Assembly: GCF_001277215.2 (NCBI RefSeq)
Contig: NZ_CP013940.1
Span: 2,666,001-2,730,000, forward strand
Length of the DNA stretch: 64,000 bases
Direction of reading: 5' to 3'
Origin: Cronobacter malonaticus LMG 23826
Lineage (GTDB): Bacteria; Pseudomonadota; Gammaproteobacteria; Enterobacterales; Enterobacteriaceae
The notes below the pieces were generated by a model. The model ran no database searches. It saw nothing but the letters and a program-made list of their open reading frames with translations, and was not told the origin of the DNA. This document shows, piece by piece, positions 2,534 through 12,353 of this stretch (position 1 is its first letter; every line of letters starts with the position of its first letter). Position numbers and translations under genes: made by a program.

Positions 2534-3400
2534 TTACTTCAACCACTGTGCATAATCAAAAGGAGCTATTTCCTTAAGAGTAGTGATAGCTATAGCTTGC
2601 CCTACGCCTGTCAAATTAACGCCACCGATTTGTGGGGCGTTAATTTTATTAATAAAACGAAATATTGCAGGAGCAATAAAACCCAATTTCTTCTTAGCTT
2701 TTTCAACGTTACTTGCACCAAAGTAAGCATATTTATGGAGATAACTATCAACCGTGTCACGCACCATAAAATCATTATAATTACATGCACCGGTATAGCT
2801 TAGGTGTTTTAAACTTGTAGGCGACAAATCAAATTTACTACCCAGATACTGTTCAAACTTTTGATGGAATGATTCTAACATATGAAGTATATTCCCCGCA
2901 GGAATCGCAGTCATTTGAACATCATTTAAGACAAAAATCACACAAATCAAAGAAATCTGAGGTTTAGTAAGTTTAGGGACAACACTAACTGCTTCATTCA
3001 GTATAATTTCCATCAAATCCGAATTACCCCCAGACACTTTTTCTACTATTAATTTAGACAACAAATCTGGATGAGATTTCTTACCCTTTCTTGCAGCAAA
3101 GGTCAATGCATCACTCAACAATGCCTGAATGTCTGGATCCTTAAACTTGTCTATAATTATTTTTTCTGAATTCTTGTGTAGTTCACTAATCACAAGCGTT
3201 TCCAGTTCCCTCCGATTGCTAATTGCCTGCTCTCTAGCAACCTCCTGAATCTTGGGGAATTGGTTTTGAAAAAGGACATCAAAAAGCTGAATCACGTCTG
3301 CAGCTGACAATCCTGTTGTAATTTTAATATCACCACCGGCCTGTAATGCAAACGAGCCATCACTTACAGATTGGTTAGCACCTTTACCAATAATTCCCAT
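2534..3400 (-). CDS. LPO_1073/Vpar_1526-like protein of unknown function
   Basis: A 288-residue predicted soluble protein. The N-terminus carries a short glycine-containing beta segment (SFALQAGGDIKITTG, about residues 15-29), followed by a charged helical stretch with an FxDPDIQ motif and then mostly alpha-helical sequence. From memory this resembles the LPO_1073/Vpar_1526 family, which has no established function. The ATG at 3400 was chosen because AAGGAG lies upstream and the previous gene's stop codon (3402-3404) sits just before it. The gene forms a two-gene operon with the small membrane protein upstream. Base composition is much more AT-rich than the backbone, and the gene lies right at the 3' end of the broken portal gene, a position where P2-like phages carry variable cargo. 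Confidence 0.75.
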   Translation of the reverse strand: MGIIGKGANQSVSDGSFALQAGGDIKITTGLSAADVIQLFDVLFQNQFPKIQEVAREQAISNRRELETLVISELHKNSEKIIIDKFKDPDIQALLSDALTFAARKGKKSHPDLLSKLIVEKVSGGNSDLMEIILNEAVSVVPKLTKPQISLICVIFVLNDVQMTAIPAGNILHMLESFHQKFEQYLGSKFDLSPTSLKHLSYTGACNYNDFMVRDTVDSYLHKYAYFGASNVEKAKKKLGFIAPAIFRFINKINAPQIGGVNLTGVGQAIAITTLKEIAPFDYAQWLK

Positions 3401-3401
3401 T

Positions 3402-3641
3402 TTATTCTTTCTCCTTTCCAGTAGAGATAGTGACATTCCCCCCAGCTTGTATCCCACATGAATTTCTTGAAACTTTTTGTCTCAAAGAATTAACATTTAA
3501 TTTATCTGAGGCAAACAATCCTAATAACATAATCAATGCAGTAATGGCTGCAATTCCAGAGTCGAATCCAGGCTTTAACCAAAACCAAGCCCCTGAAGCA
3601 ACTAGCAAAATTAGAGCCAGTATTTTAATCAAAAACTTCAT
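3402..3641 (-). CDS. Small two-helix membrane protein with a QAGG tail
   Basis: About 79 residues. Two hydrophobic segments (about residues 1-20 and 26-45) are followed by a short cytoplasmic-looking tail ending in a GIQAGGNVTISTG motif and EKE. The ATG at 3641 has GGAG nine bases upstream; an in-frame ATG at 3656 is possible but would sit almost at the transcription start. The stop lies one base from the start of the downstream 288-aa gene, so the two are probably translationally coupled. The tail motif resembles the N-terminal motif of that partner, suggesting the two proteins share a structural element or interact (inference). I do not recognise the family. Confidence 0.65.
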   Translation of the reverse strand: MKFLIKILALILLVASGAWFWLKPGFDSGIAAITALIMLLGLFASDKLNVNSLRQKVSRNSCGIQAGGNVTISTGKEKE

Positions 3642-3844
3642 ATATATATGCTCCATTTTTTCTTTTTATATCTAAGATTAATTTTTTGTGCAACTACAAC
3701 TTTACGGTATGCGCGCGCTCGTATCCCCGCCACGCCTGCCCGCTTTATGTGATGGTTTTCATACACCTGCATGACATAAGCAAAAGCCCGCCATTTCTGG
3801 CGGGCCTCAGCAAAAACGATCCTCAAACGATCATGCGTTTTCAT
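3638..3844 (-). CDS. Possible small P2-like phage protein, 3' end altered
   Basis: An open frame of 68 codons whose first 50 or so residues are basic and helix-like. The final 15 residues run into the AT-rich sequence that holds the cassette promoter, and base composition changes sharply near 3695-3700, so the natural 3' end may have been replaced when the cassette was inserted. A terminator-like hairpin lies inside the frame, which argues against coding. I do not recognise a function. Confidence 0.3.
   Translation of the reverse strand: MKTHDRLRIVFAEARQKWRAFAYVMQVYENHHIKRAGVAGIRARAYRKVVVAQKINLRYKKKKWSIYI
3665..3693 (-). promoter_or_regulatory. Predicted sigma-70 promoter of the two-gene cassette
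   Basis: On the minus strand TTGCAC (3693-3688) and TATAAA (3670-3665) are separated by exactly 17 bases, close to the sigma-70 consensus. The start codon at 3641 is about 24 bases downstream of the -10 element. The cassette therefore probably has its own promoter. Confidence 0.55.
3782..3805 (-). terminator. Intrinsic terminator-like hairpin, minus strand
   Basis: GCCCGCCA (3786-3793) and TGGCGGGC (3798-3805) form an 8-bp stem with a four-base loop. On the minus strand the stem is followed by TTTT (3785-3782). It could end leftward transcripts from the phage genes to its right. Confidence 0.5.
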
Positions 3845-3898
3845 ACAGCATAGACATGCACAATAGCACTAACGCCTCGCATGGCTCGTTGTACAACC

Positions 3899-4169: not shown

Positions 4170-4268
4170 CATATAATTAACCATCAAATGTTAATTGTTT
4201 TTTCTATATTCAAACAGATGGATCAAGTGCGATGCTTTAAAGGAGACAACGGGATAAAGGATAAATCG

Positions 4269-4496
4269 ATGCGTAAAGCATGTATTGAACTTATGGCGGG
4301 AACTAACGCAGCCTGCCTGGTTGCAGGCGAACCTGGCACTGGCCGCTGCCTTTACTTGGTTGTGGTAATGGAGGACATATTTGGTAAGCCTACAACAGAA
4401 CAATGGCTAAAAGCCTTAAGGCTTTGCGAGGCCAAAGCGGCTGAACTTAAGTATGAAGTTGCCCGCATTCGCGGTAAGAGTCTGGCTGGATTGTAA
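4269..4496 (+). CDS. Small protein of unknown function in the prophage remnant
   Basis: From the ATG at 4269, preceded by AAAGGA about six bases upstream, the frame encodes 75 residues; the same frame is open from 4188 and could give up to 102. The protein has a central hydrophobic stretch (CLYLVVVMEDIF) and a helical C-terminus rich in Ala, Lys and Glu. I do not recognise it. A LexA-type box lies about 100 bp upstream, so SOS control is possible. Confidence 0.5.
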   Translation: MRKACIELMAGTNAACLVAGEPGTGRCLYLVVVMEDIFGKPTTEQWLKALRLCEAKAAELKYEVARIRGKSLAGL

Positions 4497-4514: not shown

Positions 4515-4838
4515 TTAGTACCACTGCCGCCATTTGCCATCTTCTTGCAGACGGTGGTTGCGGTAAAAAATACGCAGCCCGGCACCTGACGGAATACTGC
4601 CGCCGCGCAGAAGTAGGTTAATCTTTGTCTCGTTGCCATCGAACCCTCTGGAACTCAGTTCTACCCCAAGCTGTAGGCGCTGCTGATCCGAAATACTCTG
4701 CTTGTATGCTTTTTTCCGCTTCGGTTTTACCAGTCTTAGCCGGGCAACCAATTCCCACCACTCTTTTTTTCCCATTCCATGCAGGTATTCTTGCAGCGTC
4801 TTTCCATCCATGGACCTAATATCCGGTACTTCACCCAC
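4515..4838 (-). CDS. Hypothetical protein, 107 aa, paired with a DUF1493 gene
   Basis: A basic protein of 107 residues with a lysine- and arginine-rich middle ([11 protein letters not shown]) and a tryptophan-rich end (GKWRQWY). No signal peptide or membrane segment is visible, and I do not recognise a family. Its ATG (4838) lies inside the last codons of the upstream DUF1493-family gene (8-nt overlap), so the two are a translationally coupled operon. The pair sits between prophage remnants and rcdA, where E. coli K-12 has no such genes. Confidence 0.6.
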
Positions 4839-5151
4839 TTGACCACCGTCCCGCCTTTACCGACGCCACAAACATCCTGATTGTCAATGGCGGTTTATCC
4901 TGTATCACTGGCTTGCGTGAAAACCATCCCGAGGTTTTCCACGGATAGTAGGCGGCCAGATCGAAGCAGCTGTGCTCTGTTCCGAAATGTCTAAAAAGCG
5001 CCTGCGCCATCTCGGCGATATCCTCGGCTTCAAACGTTTCCTGCAAAGGACTGTCGATATCAGGCGTTTGTATTTTAAGTGTAAAAGACGTCATCAGCGG
5101 CAATTCTTTTAAGATCATTGCCTGAATCTCTTTATCAGATACCGTCTCCAT
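4831..5151 (-). CDS. DUF1493 family protein
   Basis: A 106-residue soluble protein. The C-terminal pattern [17 protein letters not shown], the acidic motif before it ([13 protein letters not shown]) and the DLAAYYPW segment match my memory of DUF1493 proteins, small enterobacterial proteins of unknown function often found near mobile elements. Start at ATG 5151, with a purine-rich GGGAGCGG just upstream. It overlaps the next gene by 8 nt. A role as one half of an interacting pair is possible but not shown. Confidence 0.75.
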
Positions 5152-5925: not shown

Positions 5926-7152
5926 ATGTCATCCGACGTGAATCACTCTTCCGCGCTGCGTCACCGGACGTGGGCGCTGTTTCTGTTTTTCTTTCTGCCG
6001 GGCCTGTTGATGGCCTCCTGGGCGACCCGCACGCCGTCCATTCGTGATGTGCTGGCGGTCTCCACCGCCGGGATGGGCATCGTGCTGTTCGGGCTTTCCG
6101 TTGGCTCCATGAGCGGTATTCTCTGCTCCGGCTGGCTGGTGAAGCGCCTCGGCACGCATACGGTTATCCGCAACGGCATGGCGCTTGGGGTTATCGGGAT
6201 GCTGCTGATGGCGCTCGCGCTGTGGCTCGCCTCGCCGTTGCTGTTTGCCTGCGGGCTGGCGGTGCTGGGCGCGGGCATGGGGTCCGCCGAAGTGGCGCTG
6301 AATGTCGAAGGCGCGACGGTTGAGCAGCTACAGAACAAAACCGTGCTGCCGATGATGCACGGCTTTTACAGCCTCGGCACGCTGATTGGCGCAGGCATCG
6401 GCCTGAGCCTGACGGCGTTTCATTTTCGCGCCGATCTGCATCTCACCATCGCCACGCTGGTGACGGTCATCCCGATCATCGTCGGGCTGCGGGCTATTCC
6501 GCACGGCGTCGGTAAAGAGGCGAAAGAAGCGCGCCAGCAACGCCCTGCCGGTCATATCCCGTTCTGGAAAGATACCCAGTTGCTGCTGATTGGCCTGATT
6601 GTGCTGGCGATGGCGTTTGCCGAAGGCTCCGCCAACGACTGGCTGCCATTATTGATGGTGGACGGCCACGGTTTCAGCCCCACTTCTGGCTCGCTGATTT
6701 ACGCGGGTTTCACGCTCGGCATGACGCTCGGACGCTTCTTTGGCGGCTGGTTTATCGACCGCTACAGCCGCGTGAATGTGGTTCGCGCCAGCGCCTTAAT
6801 GGGCGCGCTCGGCATCGGGCTGATTATCTTTGTTGATAACCCGATTATCGCGAGCGTGTCGGTGCTGCTATGGGGGCTGGGCGCGTCGCTCGGCTTCCCG
6901 CTGACCATTTCGGCGGCGAGCGATACCGGGCCAGATGCGCCGGTGCGCGTTAGCGTGGTCGCCACGGCGGGCTATGTCGCCTTCCTGGTCGGCCCGCCGT
7001 TACTCGGCTTCCTGGGGGAACATTACGGATTACGCAGCGCGATGCTGGTGGTGTTGTCGCTGGTGGTGCTGGCGGCCCTGGTGGCCCGCGCGGTGGCGAA
7101 ACCCGCCACGCCGGTTGAGTCAGCGTCCGGGCAGGCGCGTGACGTTATTTAA
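5926..7152 (+). CDS. ybjJ: YbjJ, MFS transporter
   Basis: A 408-residue major facilitator superfamily protein with about 12 hydrophobic helices, similar to E. coli YbjJ (402 aa). Its substrate is not established. Start ATG at 5926, divergent from rcdA with an operator-like palindrome between them. The final codons overlap the 3' end of the convergent flagellin gene by 8 nt (7145-7152), leaving no room for a terminator. In K-12 ybjJ is followed by ybjI; here the flagellin gene has been inserted between them. Confidence 0.9.
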
Positions 7153-8596
7153 GGAGCGCGAGCACGCTCTGCGCCTGCTGGTTCGCCTGTGCCAGCACGG
7201 CGTCCCCGGCCTGTTGCAGGATCTGCGTGCGGCTGAGGTTGCTCGCCTCTTGCGCGAAATCCGCGTCTTCAATGCGGCTGCGCGCGGCGGTCGTGGCGAC
7301 GGTCTTCTGGGCCATCGCCTCTTTCGCGGAGTCAAACGTGTTCACCAGGCTGCCGTAAGTGCCGCGATACGCGCTTACGGTATCGATCGCATGATCGATG
7401 GCGTCTATGGCCTGCGACGCGCTCTGCTGATTATCAAGCCGCGCGGTATCAAGGCCGAGCGTTTTGGTGTCCGAGGGCGTGCCGGGGATGGTTTTATACT
7501 GCACCGCCTCGCCGTAGTCGGCGCTCATCACAATATCCGTATTGGTGCTGACCGGCCCGTTATCCGGCGAATCGGTGGGCTTTGGCAGCTTACTCCAGGT
7601 CATATCGCCATAGAACGAGCCGTTGCCCACTACCATAATGATCACATCTTCTGTGACCTTATCAATGGAAAGCCGTTCCAGATAGTCACCTGGCGACACA
7701 GTACCGTTGTTGGCCCAGCCTGTCGCGGGTGTCTCGTAACGGTCGCCATCGCCGCTGTAGGTAATAGTCATGCCGTTGTACTGCTTCACCGCGCCGCCAT
7801 TGACGTTGTAAGTGGGCGGCCCCTGCGTCAGGTTCGCGTCGCTATAGCTGGCACCCGGCAAAAAACCGTTATCGGTAGAGATAATTTTAGTATTCGCCAT
7901 CGCTGTGCTGTTCACCCCGTTATTCGTCCAGGTGAAATCGCGCGTAGGGCCATTCACCGGTGTGCCGACGAGATGGCTGCCATCGCGGCTGAACAGCTGG
8001 ATATCGTCATCCATCCAGCCCGAGTTAATGGTCAGCGTAATATTGGTCGCCCCAGCCGGAATATAGGCCAGCGGCACCAGCCCGGAGGTAAAGGTGTACT
8101 GCTGGCCGGGCACCGGAAAGCGCTGGTTAATAGATGGAATATTACCGAGCTGCGGCGCGGGCGGTGGCGGCGATGCCGCGGGCGCCAGCGGATATTTGCC
8201 AAAAATCGTCGTCCCTGTGGAAATGGCGTCCATCTGCGCTTTGATCTCGCTGAATTCAGCGGAAATCGCCGCGCGATCGCTCGTGTCCAGCGTGCCGGTC
8301 GCGGACTGGACGGCCAGCTCTTTTGCACGCGTCAGCAGATCGGTGACTTCAGAAAGTGCCCCCTCGGCCGTCTGCGAGAGGCTTATCCCGTCGTTCATGC
8401 TGCGCGAGGCCACGTCATTCGCCCTGAGCGTGGCCGACATACGGTTGGCAATAGCCTGCCCGGCGGCGTCATCCTTCGCGCTGTTAATGCGCATGCCGGA
8501 TGAGAGGCGCTCGATGGACTGGCTTAAGCTAGCGGCCGTTTTTTGCTGCTGCTTCAGGACATTGCCTGACATCAGGTTGTTGAAGATAGTCGCCAT
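7145..8596 (-). CDS. Orphan flagellin with atypical central domain
   Basis: A 483-residue flagellin. Residues about 1-135 are a standard D0/D1 region ([35 protein letters not shown]) and the last 105 or so are the matching C-terminal D1/D0 ([20 protein letters not shown], ending VLALLK). The middle, about residues 140-385, is unlike the usual FliC D2/D3: it begins with a Pro/Ala-rich linker ([12 protein letters not shown]) and continues as a Gly/Asp/Thr-rich, beta-strand-like domain with [19 protein letters not shown] see no HExxH zinc-protease motif. Start ATG 8596 gives the canonical MATIFNN N-terminus. No other flagellar genes lie nearby, but a sigma-28-type promoter lies upstream. Confidence 0.9.
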
Positions 8597-8638
8597 AGGG
8601 TTGCCGTTTCGCACATCGGAGAGTCGTTAACAAGGCTA

Positions 8639-10976: not shown

Positions 10977-11022
10977 TAAGCCGCTTTATGCTGGCCCTTT
11001 TCAGCTTCCGGATGACGCCGCG

Positions 11023-11763
11023 ATGCGTACTTTATCTCCGCTTTTCTGGCCTGCCAGACCCCGGATAAATAAGACAATCTCCCTTTATTCCCTGCCCGTG
11101 CGCTTTTATGTTGGTCAGCTTGCGCTGCTAACGGCGCTGGGCGTGCTGTTCACCTGGCTGTCACGCACCGAAACGCTGGACCGCTGGCTGACGCAGATGT
11201 GGTTTGACGCCGCCGCAGGGAATTTTCCCTGGCAGGACAACTACTGGCTTGATCTGCTCAACCACCGGCTCGCCAAATATTGCGCTATCGCGGTCGCCGT
11301 CGGGAGCCTGCTGTATGGCGTGATTCGTCGCCATCCGCGCTGGATAATGGTCGCGGTGCTGATGGGCCTTGGCGCCGCCGTTGTCGGCATCCTGAAGGCC
11401 ACCAGCCATCATAGCTGCCCGTGGGATCTCGTTGAGTATGGCGGAAAGGCGCTTTCTTATCCGCTTTTTGGCGCGGTACCGGACGGCAGCGGCCCTGGCC
11501 GTTGTTTCCCTGGCGGCCACGCCTCCAGCGGCTTTATGGTGATGGGCCTCTGGTTCGGCCTGCGGCGCGAGCATCCGGGGTACGCCCGGCTGGCGCTGGC
11601 GGCCGGCATTGCGCTCGGGCTCGCGATGGGCTTCGGCCAGGTGATGCGCGGTGCGCATTTCTTCACCCATAACCTGTGGGCAGGCTGGTGGGTGTGGCTC
11701 ACGCAGGTGGTGACGTGGGGCGTGACCACCACATTGATGAATAAGGAACCCGCAACCCTATGA
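11023..11763 (+). CDS. PAP2-family membrane phosphatase
   Basis: About 246 residues with roughly six membrane helices. The PAP2 signature motifs are present in a variant form: KATSHHSCPWDL (motif 1), PGGHASSG (motif 2) and MRGAHFFTHNLWAGWW (motif 3 with the catalytic His). Enzymes of this type remove phosphate from lipid A, undecaprenyl pyrophosphate or phosphatidylglycerol phosphate; the substrate here cannot be told. The ATG at 11023 is favoured because the PmrA box and -10 lie at 10960-10992; a longer TTG-started frame from 10894 would include the promoter. The stop overlaps the ybjG start (ATGA), so the two are coupled. K-12 lacks this gene here. Confidence 0.85.
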   Translation: MRTLSPLFWPARPRINKTISLYSLPVRFYVGQLALLTALGVLFTWLSRTETLDRWLTQMWFDAAAGNFPWQDNYWLDLLNHRLAKYCAIAVAVGSLLYGVIRRHPRWIMVAVLMGLGAAVVGILKATSHHSCPWDLVEYGGKALSYPLFGAVPDGSGPGRCFPGGHASSGFMVMGLWFGLRREHPGYARLALAAGIALGLAMGFGQVMRGAHFFTHNLWAGWWVWLTQVVTWGVTTTLMNKEPATL

Positions 11764-12353
11764 TGGAAGCGTTGAATCAATTTCTGTTTTTGCACATTAA
11801 CGCGACGCCCGCGTCGCCGGGCTGGCTTATCGCGCTGGCGACGTTTATCGCCCGCGATCTTATCTCGATTGTGCCGCTGCTGCCGGTGGTACTGTGGCTC
11901 TGGCGTCCGACCGAGCGCAGGCTGGTGGTGAAGTTCGCGCTGGCACTGCTCATTAGCCTCGCCGTCTCCTGGCTTGCGGGCCATCTGTTTCCCCATCCGC
12001 GCCCGTTTGTGGTCGGCCTCGGTCATCAGTTCCTGCCGCACGCGCCGGACGACTCCTATCCAAGCGATCACGGCACCGTGATTTTCACCTTCGCGCTGGC
12101 GTTTCTCTTCTGGCATCGCGTCTGGTCTGGCACGCTGTTAATGGCCGTCGCCTGCGCGATTGCCTGGTCGCGTATCTATCTCGGCGTCCACTGGCCGCTC
12201 GATATGGCGGGTGGTCTGCTGGTGGCGATGCTTGCCTGTCTGAGCGCGCAAATCCTCTGGGCACCGCTTGGCGAACCGCTCTACCGCACGCTGCGCCAGC
12301 TCTATCGTCTCTGCTTCGCGCTGCCTATCCGTAAAGGCTGGGTGCGTGACTAA
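11760..12353 (+). CDS. ybjG: Undecaprenyl-diphosphatase YbjG
   Basis: A 197-residue PAP2 membrane enzyme matching E. coli YbjG (198 aa), one of several enzymes that recycle undecaprenyl pyrophosphate to the monophosphate carrier for peptidoglycan and O-antigen synthesis. Motifs: HPRPFVVGLGH (motif 1), PSDHGT (motif 2), SRIYLGVHWPLDMAGG (motif 3). It starts at ATG 11760 (or the next codon, also ATG), overlapping the stop of the upstream PAP2 gene, and is probably transcribed from the PmrA-box promoter. Confidence 0.93.
   Translation: MMEALNQFLFLHINATPASPGWLIALATFIARDLISIVPLLPVVLWLWRPTERRLVVKFALALLISLAVSWLAGHLFPHPRPFVVGLGHQFLPHAPDDSYPSDHGTVIFTFALAFLFWHRVWSGTLLMAVACAIAWSRIYLGVHWPLDMAGGLLVAMLACLSAQILWAPLGEPLYRTLRQLYRLCFALPIRKGWVRD

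What the first reader, a model, noticed from the sequence alone, without database searches (positions are those of the whole stretch)
2534..3700. AT-rich two-gene cassette at a P2-prophage cargo position: candidate undescribed defence or exclusion system
Seen: two coupled genes (a 79-aa two-helix membrane protein and a 288-aa soluble protein) with their own TTGCAC/TATAAA promoter, much more AT-rich than both flanks, directly after the 3' end of a broken P2-like portal gene. Known: in P2 the region beside the portal gene's 3' end carries tin and old, and related phages place anti-phage systems there. Inferred: the pair is phage cargo, possibly a membrane-linked anti-phage module, kept intact while the surrounding phage genes decayed.
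Basis: partly seen in the sequence, partly recalled or inferred. Interest (0 to 1): 0.72.

Follow-up and report, generated by a model that had tools for sequence, protein, structure and literature searches.

The report
Motif-paired membrane gene pair, probable phage defence
Beside the DNA-packaging site of a decayed virus relic sit two intact genes, a tiny membrane protein and a soluble partner, that carry the same short sequence tag; relatives in distant bacteria keep the pair and the matching tags together, which suggests an undescribed two-part alarm that switches on a membrane effector, probably against other viruses.

Summary
On the minus strand at 2534-3641 lie a 79-aa two-helix membrane protein and a 288-aa protein, one base apart and AT-rich (36.6% GC; window 57%), between a broken P2-like portal gene and the P2 cos core (3724-3736). 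The 288-aa protein belongs to NCBIfam NF045477 (LPO_1073/Vpar_1526; 212.5 bits, cut-off 45), for which I found no described function. In all 28 loci with readable upstream DNA (many closely related) a small gene precedes the family gene. Its C-terminal tail and the large protein's N-terminus carry the same ~22-residue motif, and the two copies co-vary (13 non-redundant pairs, permutation p = 2e-5). The motif moderately resembles a published amyloid-forming, RHIM-like bacterial peptide (BASS3). 15 of the 28 sit in the same portal-cos slot of the known P2 defence hotspot; 4 of 5 E. coli copies read lie beside the Hp1-Hp3 defence genes. Others lie beside integrases, in an integron, or (2) between housekeeping genes. 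Best reading: an abortive-infection-like module in which a soluble sensor switches on a membrane effector through the shared motif. Pairing, motif, slot and purifying selection are shown by computation; anti-phage activity, amyloid assembly and direction of signalling are inferred.

The parts
3402..3641 (-). 79-aa small membrane protein: two-helix hairpin plus tail with the shared motif; proposed effector
   Evidence: PHROG 27656 E 1.8e-14; AF2 helices 2-22 and 26-47; a small upstream partner in 28 of 28 loci
2534..3400 (-). 288-aa soluble, mostly helical protein, LPO_1073/Vpar_1526 family; proposed sensor
   Evidence: NF045477, 212.5 bits vs cut-off 45; PHROG 19542 E 1.7e-61; AF2 mean pLDDT 84.2, helical from residue 33, residues 1-24 below pLDDT 50
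3417..3482 (-). shared motif, copy 1 (residues 54-75 of the small protein, RQKVSRNSCGIQAGGNVTISTG)
   Evidence: short low-confidence strands 62-65 and 68-71 in the model
3311..3376 (-). shared motif, copy 2 (residues 9-30 of the 288-aa protein, NQSVSDGSFALQAGGDIKITTG)
3665..3693 (-). promoter-like element TTGCAC-17-TATAAA ahead of the pair
   Evidence: 8 of 12 consensus positions; similar place relative to cos in L002 and L010; not reported by the scanner
3724..3736 (-). cos core GGCGTGGCGGGGA (P2: ggcgaggcgggga)
   Evidence: core found 337-343 bases upstream of the family gene's start in 15 of 28 loci
3710..3860 (.). stretch where homology to two pair-less E. coli P2-like prophages resumes: right edge of the exchanged segment, 14 bases before the cos core
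   Evidence: alignment with L083 and L084
1935..2511 (+). remnant of a P2-like portal gene (gpQ residues about 149 to the end, in three frames, N-terminal part missing)
4515..4838 (-). fragment matching the end of a gpA-type replication protein (other side of the hotspot)
   Evidence: PHROG 23581 and 14885 (unknown function) and 91 (nicking at origin, E 8.3e-8); tblastn with P2 gpA itself gave no hit in the window

Best explanation
A two-gene, motif-coupled sensor-effector module carried as cargo at the P2 cos hotspot. The 288-aa cytosolic protein is the sensor or switch. On detecting a phage-infection cue (unknown) it exposes or multimerises its N-terminal motif. That motif pairs with and templates the matching motif on the tail of the 79-aa two-helix protein, clustering it in the inner membrane so that it permeabilises or depolarises the membrane and stops phage growth at the cell's expense, in the manner proposed for RexA and RexB. 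Shown by computation: the two genes always together in the loci held, the motif in both proteins, its co-variation, predicted membrane hairpin and disordered N-terminus, constrained coding change, hotspot position, and company of known defence genes. Inferred: defence function, which protein senses and which acts, cytosolic tail topology, beta-arch or amyloid-like (RHIM-like) assembly, membrane damage.
For: Small gene with the motif upstream of the family gene in 28 of 28 loci with upstream sequence (26 by script; the two misses, L008 and L025, by eye); L027-L030 were fetched with a query that held both genes, the others were not. Profile comparison of small-protein alignment A7 with large-protein alignment A2 aligns only the motif: 25 columns, probability 97.1%, E 7.4e-11. 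Matched pairs score 54.4 on average, mismatched 40.7, permutation p = 2e-5, n = 13 of the 28, one per sequence type; without the window p = 1e-5, n = 12; main group p = 0.008, n = 8. N-terminal motif by a loose pattern in 167 of 173 family proteins with a Met start (control stretch 47 of 173, reversed N-terminus 22 of 173). A BASS3 peptide resembles the motif more than its shuffles do (7 of 1000 reach it; peptide from PMC8086366). dN/dS 0.09 to 0.24 in six comparisons. Same slot in 15 of 28 loci; PADLOC Hp1-Hp3 across cos in 4 of 5 E. coli copies read. Beside tyrosine integrases (L033, L072, L074) and in an integron array (L076).
Against: No experiment. No PADLOC match for either protein. No relative in deposited phages. 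Two of 28 loci lie between core genes (L013, L014). The membrane hairpin is not uniform: by hydropathy 7 of 13 small proteins have two helices, 5 have one and L025 has none above threshold. The likeness to BASS3 is moderate: HMM score 4.5 bits with 53 of 2000 shuffles as good, and the other two amyloid-positive peptides tried do not stand out (73 and 107 of 1000). The smaller, diverged group alone shows no significant co-variation (n = 5, p = 0.15). No sensor domain is recognised: for the window protein Pfam has only one sub-cut-off hit, and over 59 and 4 relatives the best E-values are 0.0025 and 0.009, scattered over unrelated families. So the trigger is unknown.
Confidence: 0.55

Rival explanations
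1. Constitutive membrane-anchored complex (superinfection exclusion): the motif simply docks the soluble protein on the hairpin protein all the time, and the complex blocks DNA entry or another early phage step without killing the cell.
For: The motif pairing needs no switch; the P2 hotspot carries the exclusion genes tin and old (PMC9122126 passages).
Against: Motif length and form resemble the signalling type; the pair also occurs in a Rikenellaceae and a Bacillales MAG with neighbours that are not phage genes by my reading.
Confidence: 0.17
2. Toxin-antitoxin-like pair: the hydrophobic small protein is a toxin that the large protein neutralises by binding its tail; it stabilises the prophage.
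For: Two coupled genes, small hydrophobic protein first, co-varying motif; AT-rich and intact in a decayed prophage.
Against: The large protein is far bigger than usual antitoxins (recalled) and its 257-position domain is the part that defines the family; one locus (L033) has two large genes for one small gene.
Confidence: 0.12
3. Lysogenic-conversion cargo unrelated to phages, for example an envelope-stress sensor.
For: Family namesake Vpar_1526 is listed in an outer-membrane proteome paper with unclear localisation (PMC5491611, one passage); positions between core genes in L013 and L014.
Against: Sparse distribution (3 of 295, 2 of 369 and 3 of 398 genomes, the window's own counted each time) and hotspot, integrase and integron neighbours fit accessory conflict genes better.
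Confidence: 0.12
4. Decaying or neutral remnant without function.
For: The surrounding prophage is broken.
Against: Both ORFs intact; dN/dS well below 1; pairing kept in other phyla.
Confidence: 0.04

Closest known systems
NCBIfam NF045477, LPO_1073/Vpar_1526 family protein
   Same: The 288-aa protein is a full-length member.
   Different: The NCBI match starts at residue 30, after the N-terminal motif, and the model's description gives neither a function nor a membrane partner.
Bacterial amyloid signalling pairs (BASS motifs on Bell-domain effectors and NLR receptors; Dyrka et al. 2020 not read, known here through passages of PMC7889193 and passages and one section of PMC8086366)
   Same: Adjacent genes; motif at the C-terminus of a small membrane-type effector and at the N-terminus of the receptor; motif about 20 residues; resemblance to a BASS3 peptide.
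   Different: The receptor here is not recognisable as an NLR; carriers include enterobacteria, whereas PMC7889193 describes the BASS pairs mainly from filamentous bacteria.
Lambda RexA-RexB
   Same: Prophage-borne pair of a soluble infection sensor of similar size (279 aa) and a membrane protein (PMC12894663 passages).
   Different: No sequence relation found (hhalign probability 0.4% and 0.8%); RexB is larger (144 aa). The lambda record labels both genes rexb, so which is RexA is recalled.
P2-like cos-proximal defence hotspot (Rousset et al. 2022, PMC9122126, passages read)
   Same: Position between gpA and gpQ, abutting cos.
   Different: The pair sits on the portal side of cos; P2's old-tin and the Hp1-Hp3 copies seen here sit on the other side. 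Whether the pair is among that paper's 169 listed systems could not be checked (supplements closed). That Hp1-Hp3 are the paper's three-gene anti-P1 system (3HP) is recalled.
CBASS 2TM effector model (PADLOC PDLC00710)
   Same: Two membrane helices; weak hit to 2 of 12 small proteins, best E 0.017, none to the window's own.
   Different: Hit is marginal; no cyclase was looked for.

Membership tests
NF045477 LPO_1073/Vpar_1526 | Score above the curated cut-off of 45 bits over the 257-position model | tested here: met
   212.5 bits, model positions 1-257
P2 cos-proximal hotspot cargo | Lies between gpA and gpQ next to cos, with other content in related phages | tested here: met
   none of 1372 matching E. 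coli records covers 80% of the window stretch, i.e. flanks without the pair; gpA in the window is only a PHROG-level fragment
P2 cos-proximal hotspot cargo | Anti-phage activity | not testable with these tools
   needs plating
NLR-associated amyloid signalling (BASS) | Same motif at effector C-terminus and receptor N-terminus, adjacent genes | tested here: met
NLR-associated amyloid signalling (BASS) | Receptor is an NLR (NACHT or NB-ARC NTPase) | tested here: not met
   No NACHT or NB-ARC hit among 59 and 4 members; the only ATPase-type hits are chance-level (AAA_lid_3 in 2 of 59, best E 0.065; ATPase_2 in 1 of 59, E 0.17); the model is a mostly helical domain of about 255 residues
NLR-associated amyloid signalling (BASS) | Motif belongs to one of the ten BASS families | tested here: inconclusive
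   Only one BASS3 peptide was at hand; 7 of 1000 shuffles reach its mean alignment score, 53 of 2000 its HMM score
NLR-associated amyloid signalling (BASS) | Effector carries a Bell domain | not tested
   no Bell model was at hand
NLR-associated amyloid signalling (BASS) | Motif forms amyloid and templates the partner | not testable with these tools
   needs peptides and fibres
RexAB | Homology to RexA and RexB | tested here: inconclusive
   hhalign finds none, but RexA and RexB were single sequences
Abi_alpha (PF14337) | Homology of the large protein | tested here: inconclusive
   hhalign probability 0.2% against four members
Any system in PADLOC-DB 2.0.0 | Match to a defence model | tested here: not met
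   No family at E up to 10 for either window protein

The most novel reading that the evidence does not exclude
A RHIM-like amyloid signalosome without an NLR: a large family in unicellular bacteria and their prophages in which a soluble helical sensor without a recognised fold templates a cognate motif on a minimal membrane executioner, each pair insulated by co-evolved motif sequences.
Probability: 0.33. Interest if true: 0.85.

Novelty: new variant of a known kind. Interest (0 to 1): 0.64.

Why it matters
A review of amyloid signalling (PMC7889193, passages read) asks whether bacteria use signalling amyloids in pathways not dependent on NLRs. This pair is small, modular, present in E. coli prophages and testable in a laboratory strain, and the co-varying motifs make specificity directly testable. 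It would also give a function to a named but unexplained family (1065 proteins at E <= 0.001 in the search with its diverged group) and add a system to the P2 defence hotspot.

Tried and rejected

Motif elsewhere: in 149 family genomes only the three family-positive ones gave hits at E < 0.007, and their sequences trained the model, so that is by construction; many of the weaker hits fall in giant open frames (about 2700-5900 aa), which I take from memory to be haemagglutinin-type repeats, not checked. In 139 phylum genomes 4 had hits at E <= 0.02: two family-positive (also in the training set) and two poor ones in short frames.

Published account: the family name was searched (one paper, a proteome table); amyloid or RHIM-like phage defence (0 papers; listings; PMC12881547 also by passages). 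None of what I saw describes this pair. The library lacks most subscription journals and supplements could not be opened.

Limits: the four viral-contig scans (one search found nothing) and the genome-contig scan use two peptide patterns each, so loci are lower bounds. The 28 loci are not independent: 15 are close relatives of others in the set. One search finds only DNA of roughly 85% identity or more. In the dN/dS run one value (small gene, window against L015) was out of register and was dropped. In one search several motif anchors were wrong; one search replaced it. In one search, 4 of 177 proteins lacked a Met start and were dropped, and the 120 type-B proteins are the best listed of 1065.

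Full report
WHAT IS THERE. The window is enterobacterial: the nearest relative of the larger protein is annotated Cronobacter muytjensii (97%), and the 4.47 Mb genome holds one copy of the family. Between two ordinary chromosomal genes (by my reading) lies a short wreck of a P2-like prophage. Its portal gene is reduced to residues from about 149 on, in three pieces that lie in three frames. Of the replication side only PHROG-level fragments are seen; P2 gpA itself gives no tblastn hit. Directly after the portal's end, on the opposite strand, sit two intact coupled genes: a 79-aa protein with two predicted membrane helices and a 288-aa protein. Then comes the P2 cos core at 3724-3736. The pair has 36.6% GC against 57% for the window; in L002 and in all 13 other loci measured the pair is also poorer in GC than the rest of its locus, by 2.5 to 21 points.

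THE SLOT. None of 1372 E. coli records that match the window stretch covers 80% of it: E. coli has the flanks, not the window's pair. Alignment with two of those prophages shows homology up to the end of the portal gene and again from window position 3710, 14 bases before the cos core; the pair fills the space between. L083 has no gene there, and L084 has a DUF6236 gene across cos. Rousset et al. (PMC9122126; passages seen) describe this cos-proximal region between gpA and gpQ as a hotspot of anti-phage systems and speculate that cohesive ends promote exchange there. In P2 itself tin and old lie on the other side of cos. An E. coli version of the pair (41% identical large protein) is found in 6 of 5426 complete E. 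coli genomes over at least 80% of the query. I read five of those six: all are portal-pair-cos. Four have across cos the three genes that PADLOC calls Hp1-Hp3 (tested on L002; same protein accessions and, with one variant, 57). One (L029) has two other unknown genes there. That Hp1-Hp3 are the three-gene anti-P1 system of Rousset et al. (3HP) is recalled. The pair is thus exchanged independently of what lies across cos.

THE FAMILY. The large protein is NCBIfam NF045477, 212.5 bits against a cut-off of 45. Its relatives carry the Pfam accession PF28206 in the protein database, which the local Pfam scan did not report. Members occur in 3 of 295 family, 2 of 369 class and 3 of 398 phylum genomes, the window's genome being counted each time. 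A profile of the diverged group finds 1065 proteins at E <= 0.001 among the 7997 candidates scored, and the two groups align over full length (probability 100%, E 1.6e-55). Including the window I hold 29 loci; one (L024) starts at the family gene and has no upstream DNA. In the other 28 a small motif-bearing gene lies directly upstream or overlaps: 26 by script, and L008 and L025 by eye because the overlap or start choice defeated the script. The 28 fall into 13 sequence types. By hydropathy the small proteins of 7 types have two helices, 5 have one, and L025 has none above threshold.

WHERE THEY LIE. In 15 of the 28 the cos core stands 337-343 bases before the family gene and P2-like portal sequence follows it; these are three sequence types, not 15 independent events. 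Three lie next to tyrosine integrases (L033; L006, extended as L072; L008, extended as L074). One is in an integron (L026, extended as L076): an integron integrase (TIGR02249, 421.9 bits) is present and an attC-like repeat at 6399-6473 directly follows the pair; the next repeat on the other side is at 8316-8415, beyond a further ORF. L012 lies near a terminase gene; L022 looks like the same sequence and was not examined apart. By my reading of ORFs, L007 (as L073) lies between glycyl-tRNA synthetase and other genes beside an IS3 transposase fragment, L041 near tail-fibre-like ORFs, L025 (as L075) near an rpoD-like gene, L011 near a large ORF without family match, and L013 (Rikenellaceae MAG) and L014 (Bacillales MAG) between housekeeping genes. 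L023 was not examined further.

THE SHARED MOTIF. The tail of the small protein and the first thirty or so residues of the large one carry the same pattern, roughly Q-x-V-x-x-x-S-x-[GAN]-[IV]-Q-[AV]-G-G-[ND]-[VI]-x-I. A profile comparison of the two families aligns these 25 columns and nothing else (probability 97.1%, E 7.4e-11). In 12 of 13 pairs no shuffle of 500 reaches the matched score, in L008 one does. A loose pattern finds the motif in 167 of 173 family proteins with a Met start, against 47 of 173 in residues 76-150 and 22 of 173 in reversed N-termini; of the six misses two lack the N-terminal region and the others are variants. Across the 13 types, matched pairs are more alike than mismatched ones (54.4 against 40.7; p = 2e-5). 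This holds without the window (p = 1e-5) and inside the main group (n = 8, p = 0.008) but not in the small diverged group alone (n = 5, p = 0.15). Common descent of the loci does not by itself make two different proteins of one locus resemble each other, so I read this as co-evolution of a contact, with the caution that the pairs are not independent. In the structure models the motif region of the large protein is disordered (residues 1-24 below pLDDT 50) and forms two short low-confidence strands around the GG in the small one.

WHAT IT RESEMBLES. In published bacterial amyloid signalling pairs the motif sits at the C-terminus of a small membrane-type effector and the N-terminus of an NLR receptor encoded next door (passages of PMC7889193 and PMC8086366 and one section of the latter). 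The arrangement here is the same apart from the receptor. A BASS3 RHIM-like peptide reported there to aggregate as amyloid aligns with the motif (GVQVGDGNVQIN with GIQAG-GNVTIN). Its mean score to the 23 motifs is reached by 7 of 1000 shuffles; by HMM, 53 of 2000. The three other peptides of that table do worse (73, 107 and 905 of 1000); the last is the one that did not aggregate. With four peptides tried this is suggestive, not proof. By function the nearest model is lambda RexAB, a soluble infection sensor thought to activate a membrane protein (PMC12894663 passages); there is no detectable sequence relation.

HOW IT PROBABLY WORKS. The large protein senses an infection cue with its helical domain, its free N-terminal motif assembles and recruits the tail of the membrane protein, and the clustered membrane proteins damage the inner membrane. 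Positive charges at the N-terminus and after the second helix would place the tail in the cytosol (inference). The coding changes (large gene: window against L009 dN 0.032, dS 0.175; window against L015 0.100 and 1.04; L009 against L015 0.097 and 1.04; L010 against L016 0.058 and 0.394; small gene: window against L009 0.017 and 0.117; L010 against L016 0.039 and 0.161) give ratios of 0.09 to 0.24 and say that both proteins are constrained across lineages; they do not prove selection inside this decayed prophage. Two E. coli copies likewise keep the pair intact beside a portal gene annotated with an internal stop.

WHAT SPEAKS AGAINST. There is no experimental evidence of defence, PADLOC has no model, 50,697 phage records contain no relative, although PHROGs has families for both proteins, and two loci lie between core genes. 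The hairpin is not uniform and the trigger is unknown. The family namesake Vpar_1526 appears in an outer-membrane proteome table with unclear localisation (PMC5491611, one passage), which fits membrane association but could mean another role.

VERDICT. Real, conserved, mobile, hotspot-borne; a named family without known function gains a partner, a shared co-varying motif and a testable mechanism. I put 0.55 on the motif-coupled defence module and 0.33 on the stronger claim of an amyloid-type signalosome without an NLR; the corrections made on checking did not change these odds.

Noticed in passing
7145-8614 (-): Isolated flagellin-like ORF (489 aa) whose middle looks replaced by an unrelated domain, by my reading of the translation; no flagellar neighbours in the part read.
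   Followed up: no
L033 1237-3370: One small membrane gene followed by two tandem family genes, both with the motif, right after an integrase: a possible one-effector, two-sensor arrangement.
   Followed up: partly
L076 6399-12033: The pair lies in an integron cassette array: attC-like repeat directly after it, integron integrase at 10993-12033.
   Followed up: yes
L078 1504-1908: Similar two-helix hairpin fused to a different tail without the motif, suggesting the hairpin is a reusable membrane module.
   Followed up: no
G000 contig 2 near 32408 and 34202; G108 contig 2 near 120413-122242: Motif model gives weak hits (E 0.05-0.33) in giant open frames, perhaps haemagglutinin-type repeats (from memory), as if the motif were like one rung of a beta-solenoid.
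   Followed up: no
L029 2826-3692 and 3942-4595: Two unknown genes in the cos hotspot across from the pair, without Pfam or NCBIfam match at E <= 0.001: further candidate defence cargo.
   Followed up: partly
4188-4496 (+): Small ORF matching PHROG 9726 (E 4.6e-52) of unknown function beyond cos; next to the gpA-type fragment a DUF1493 ORF at 4831-5151 (-).
   Followed up: no
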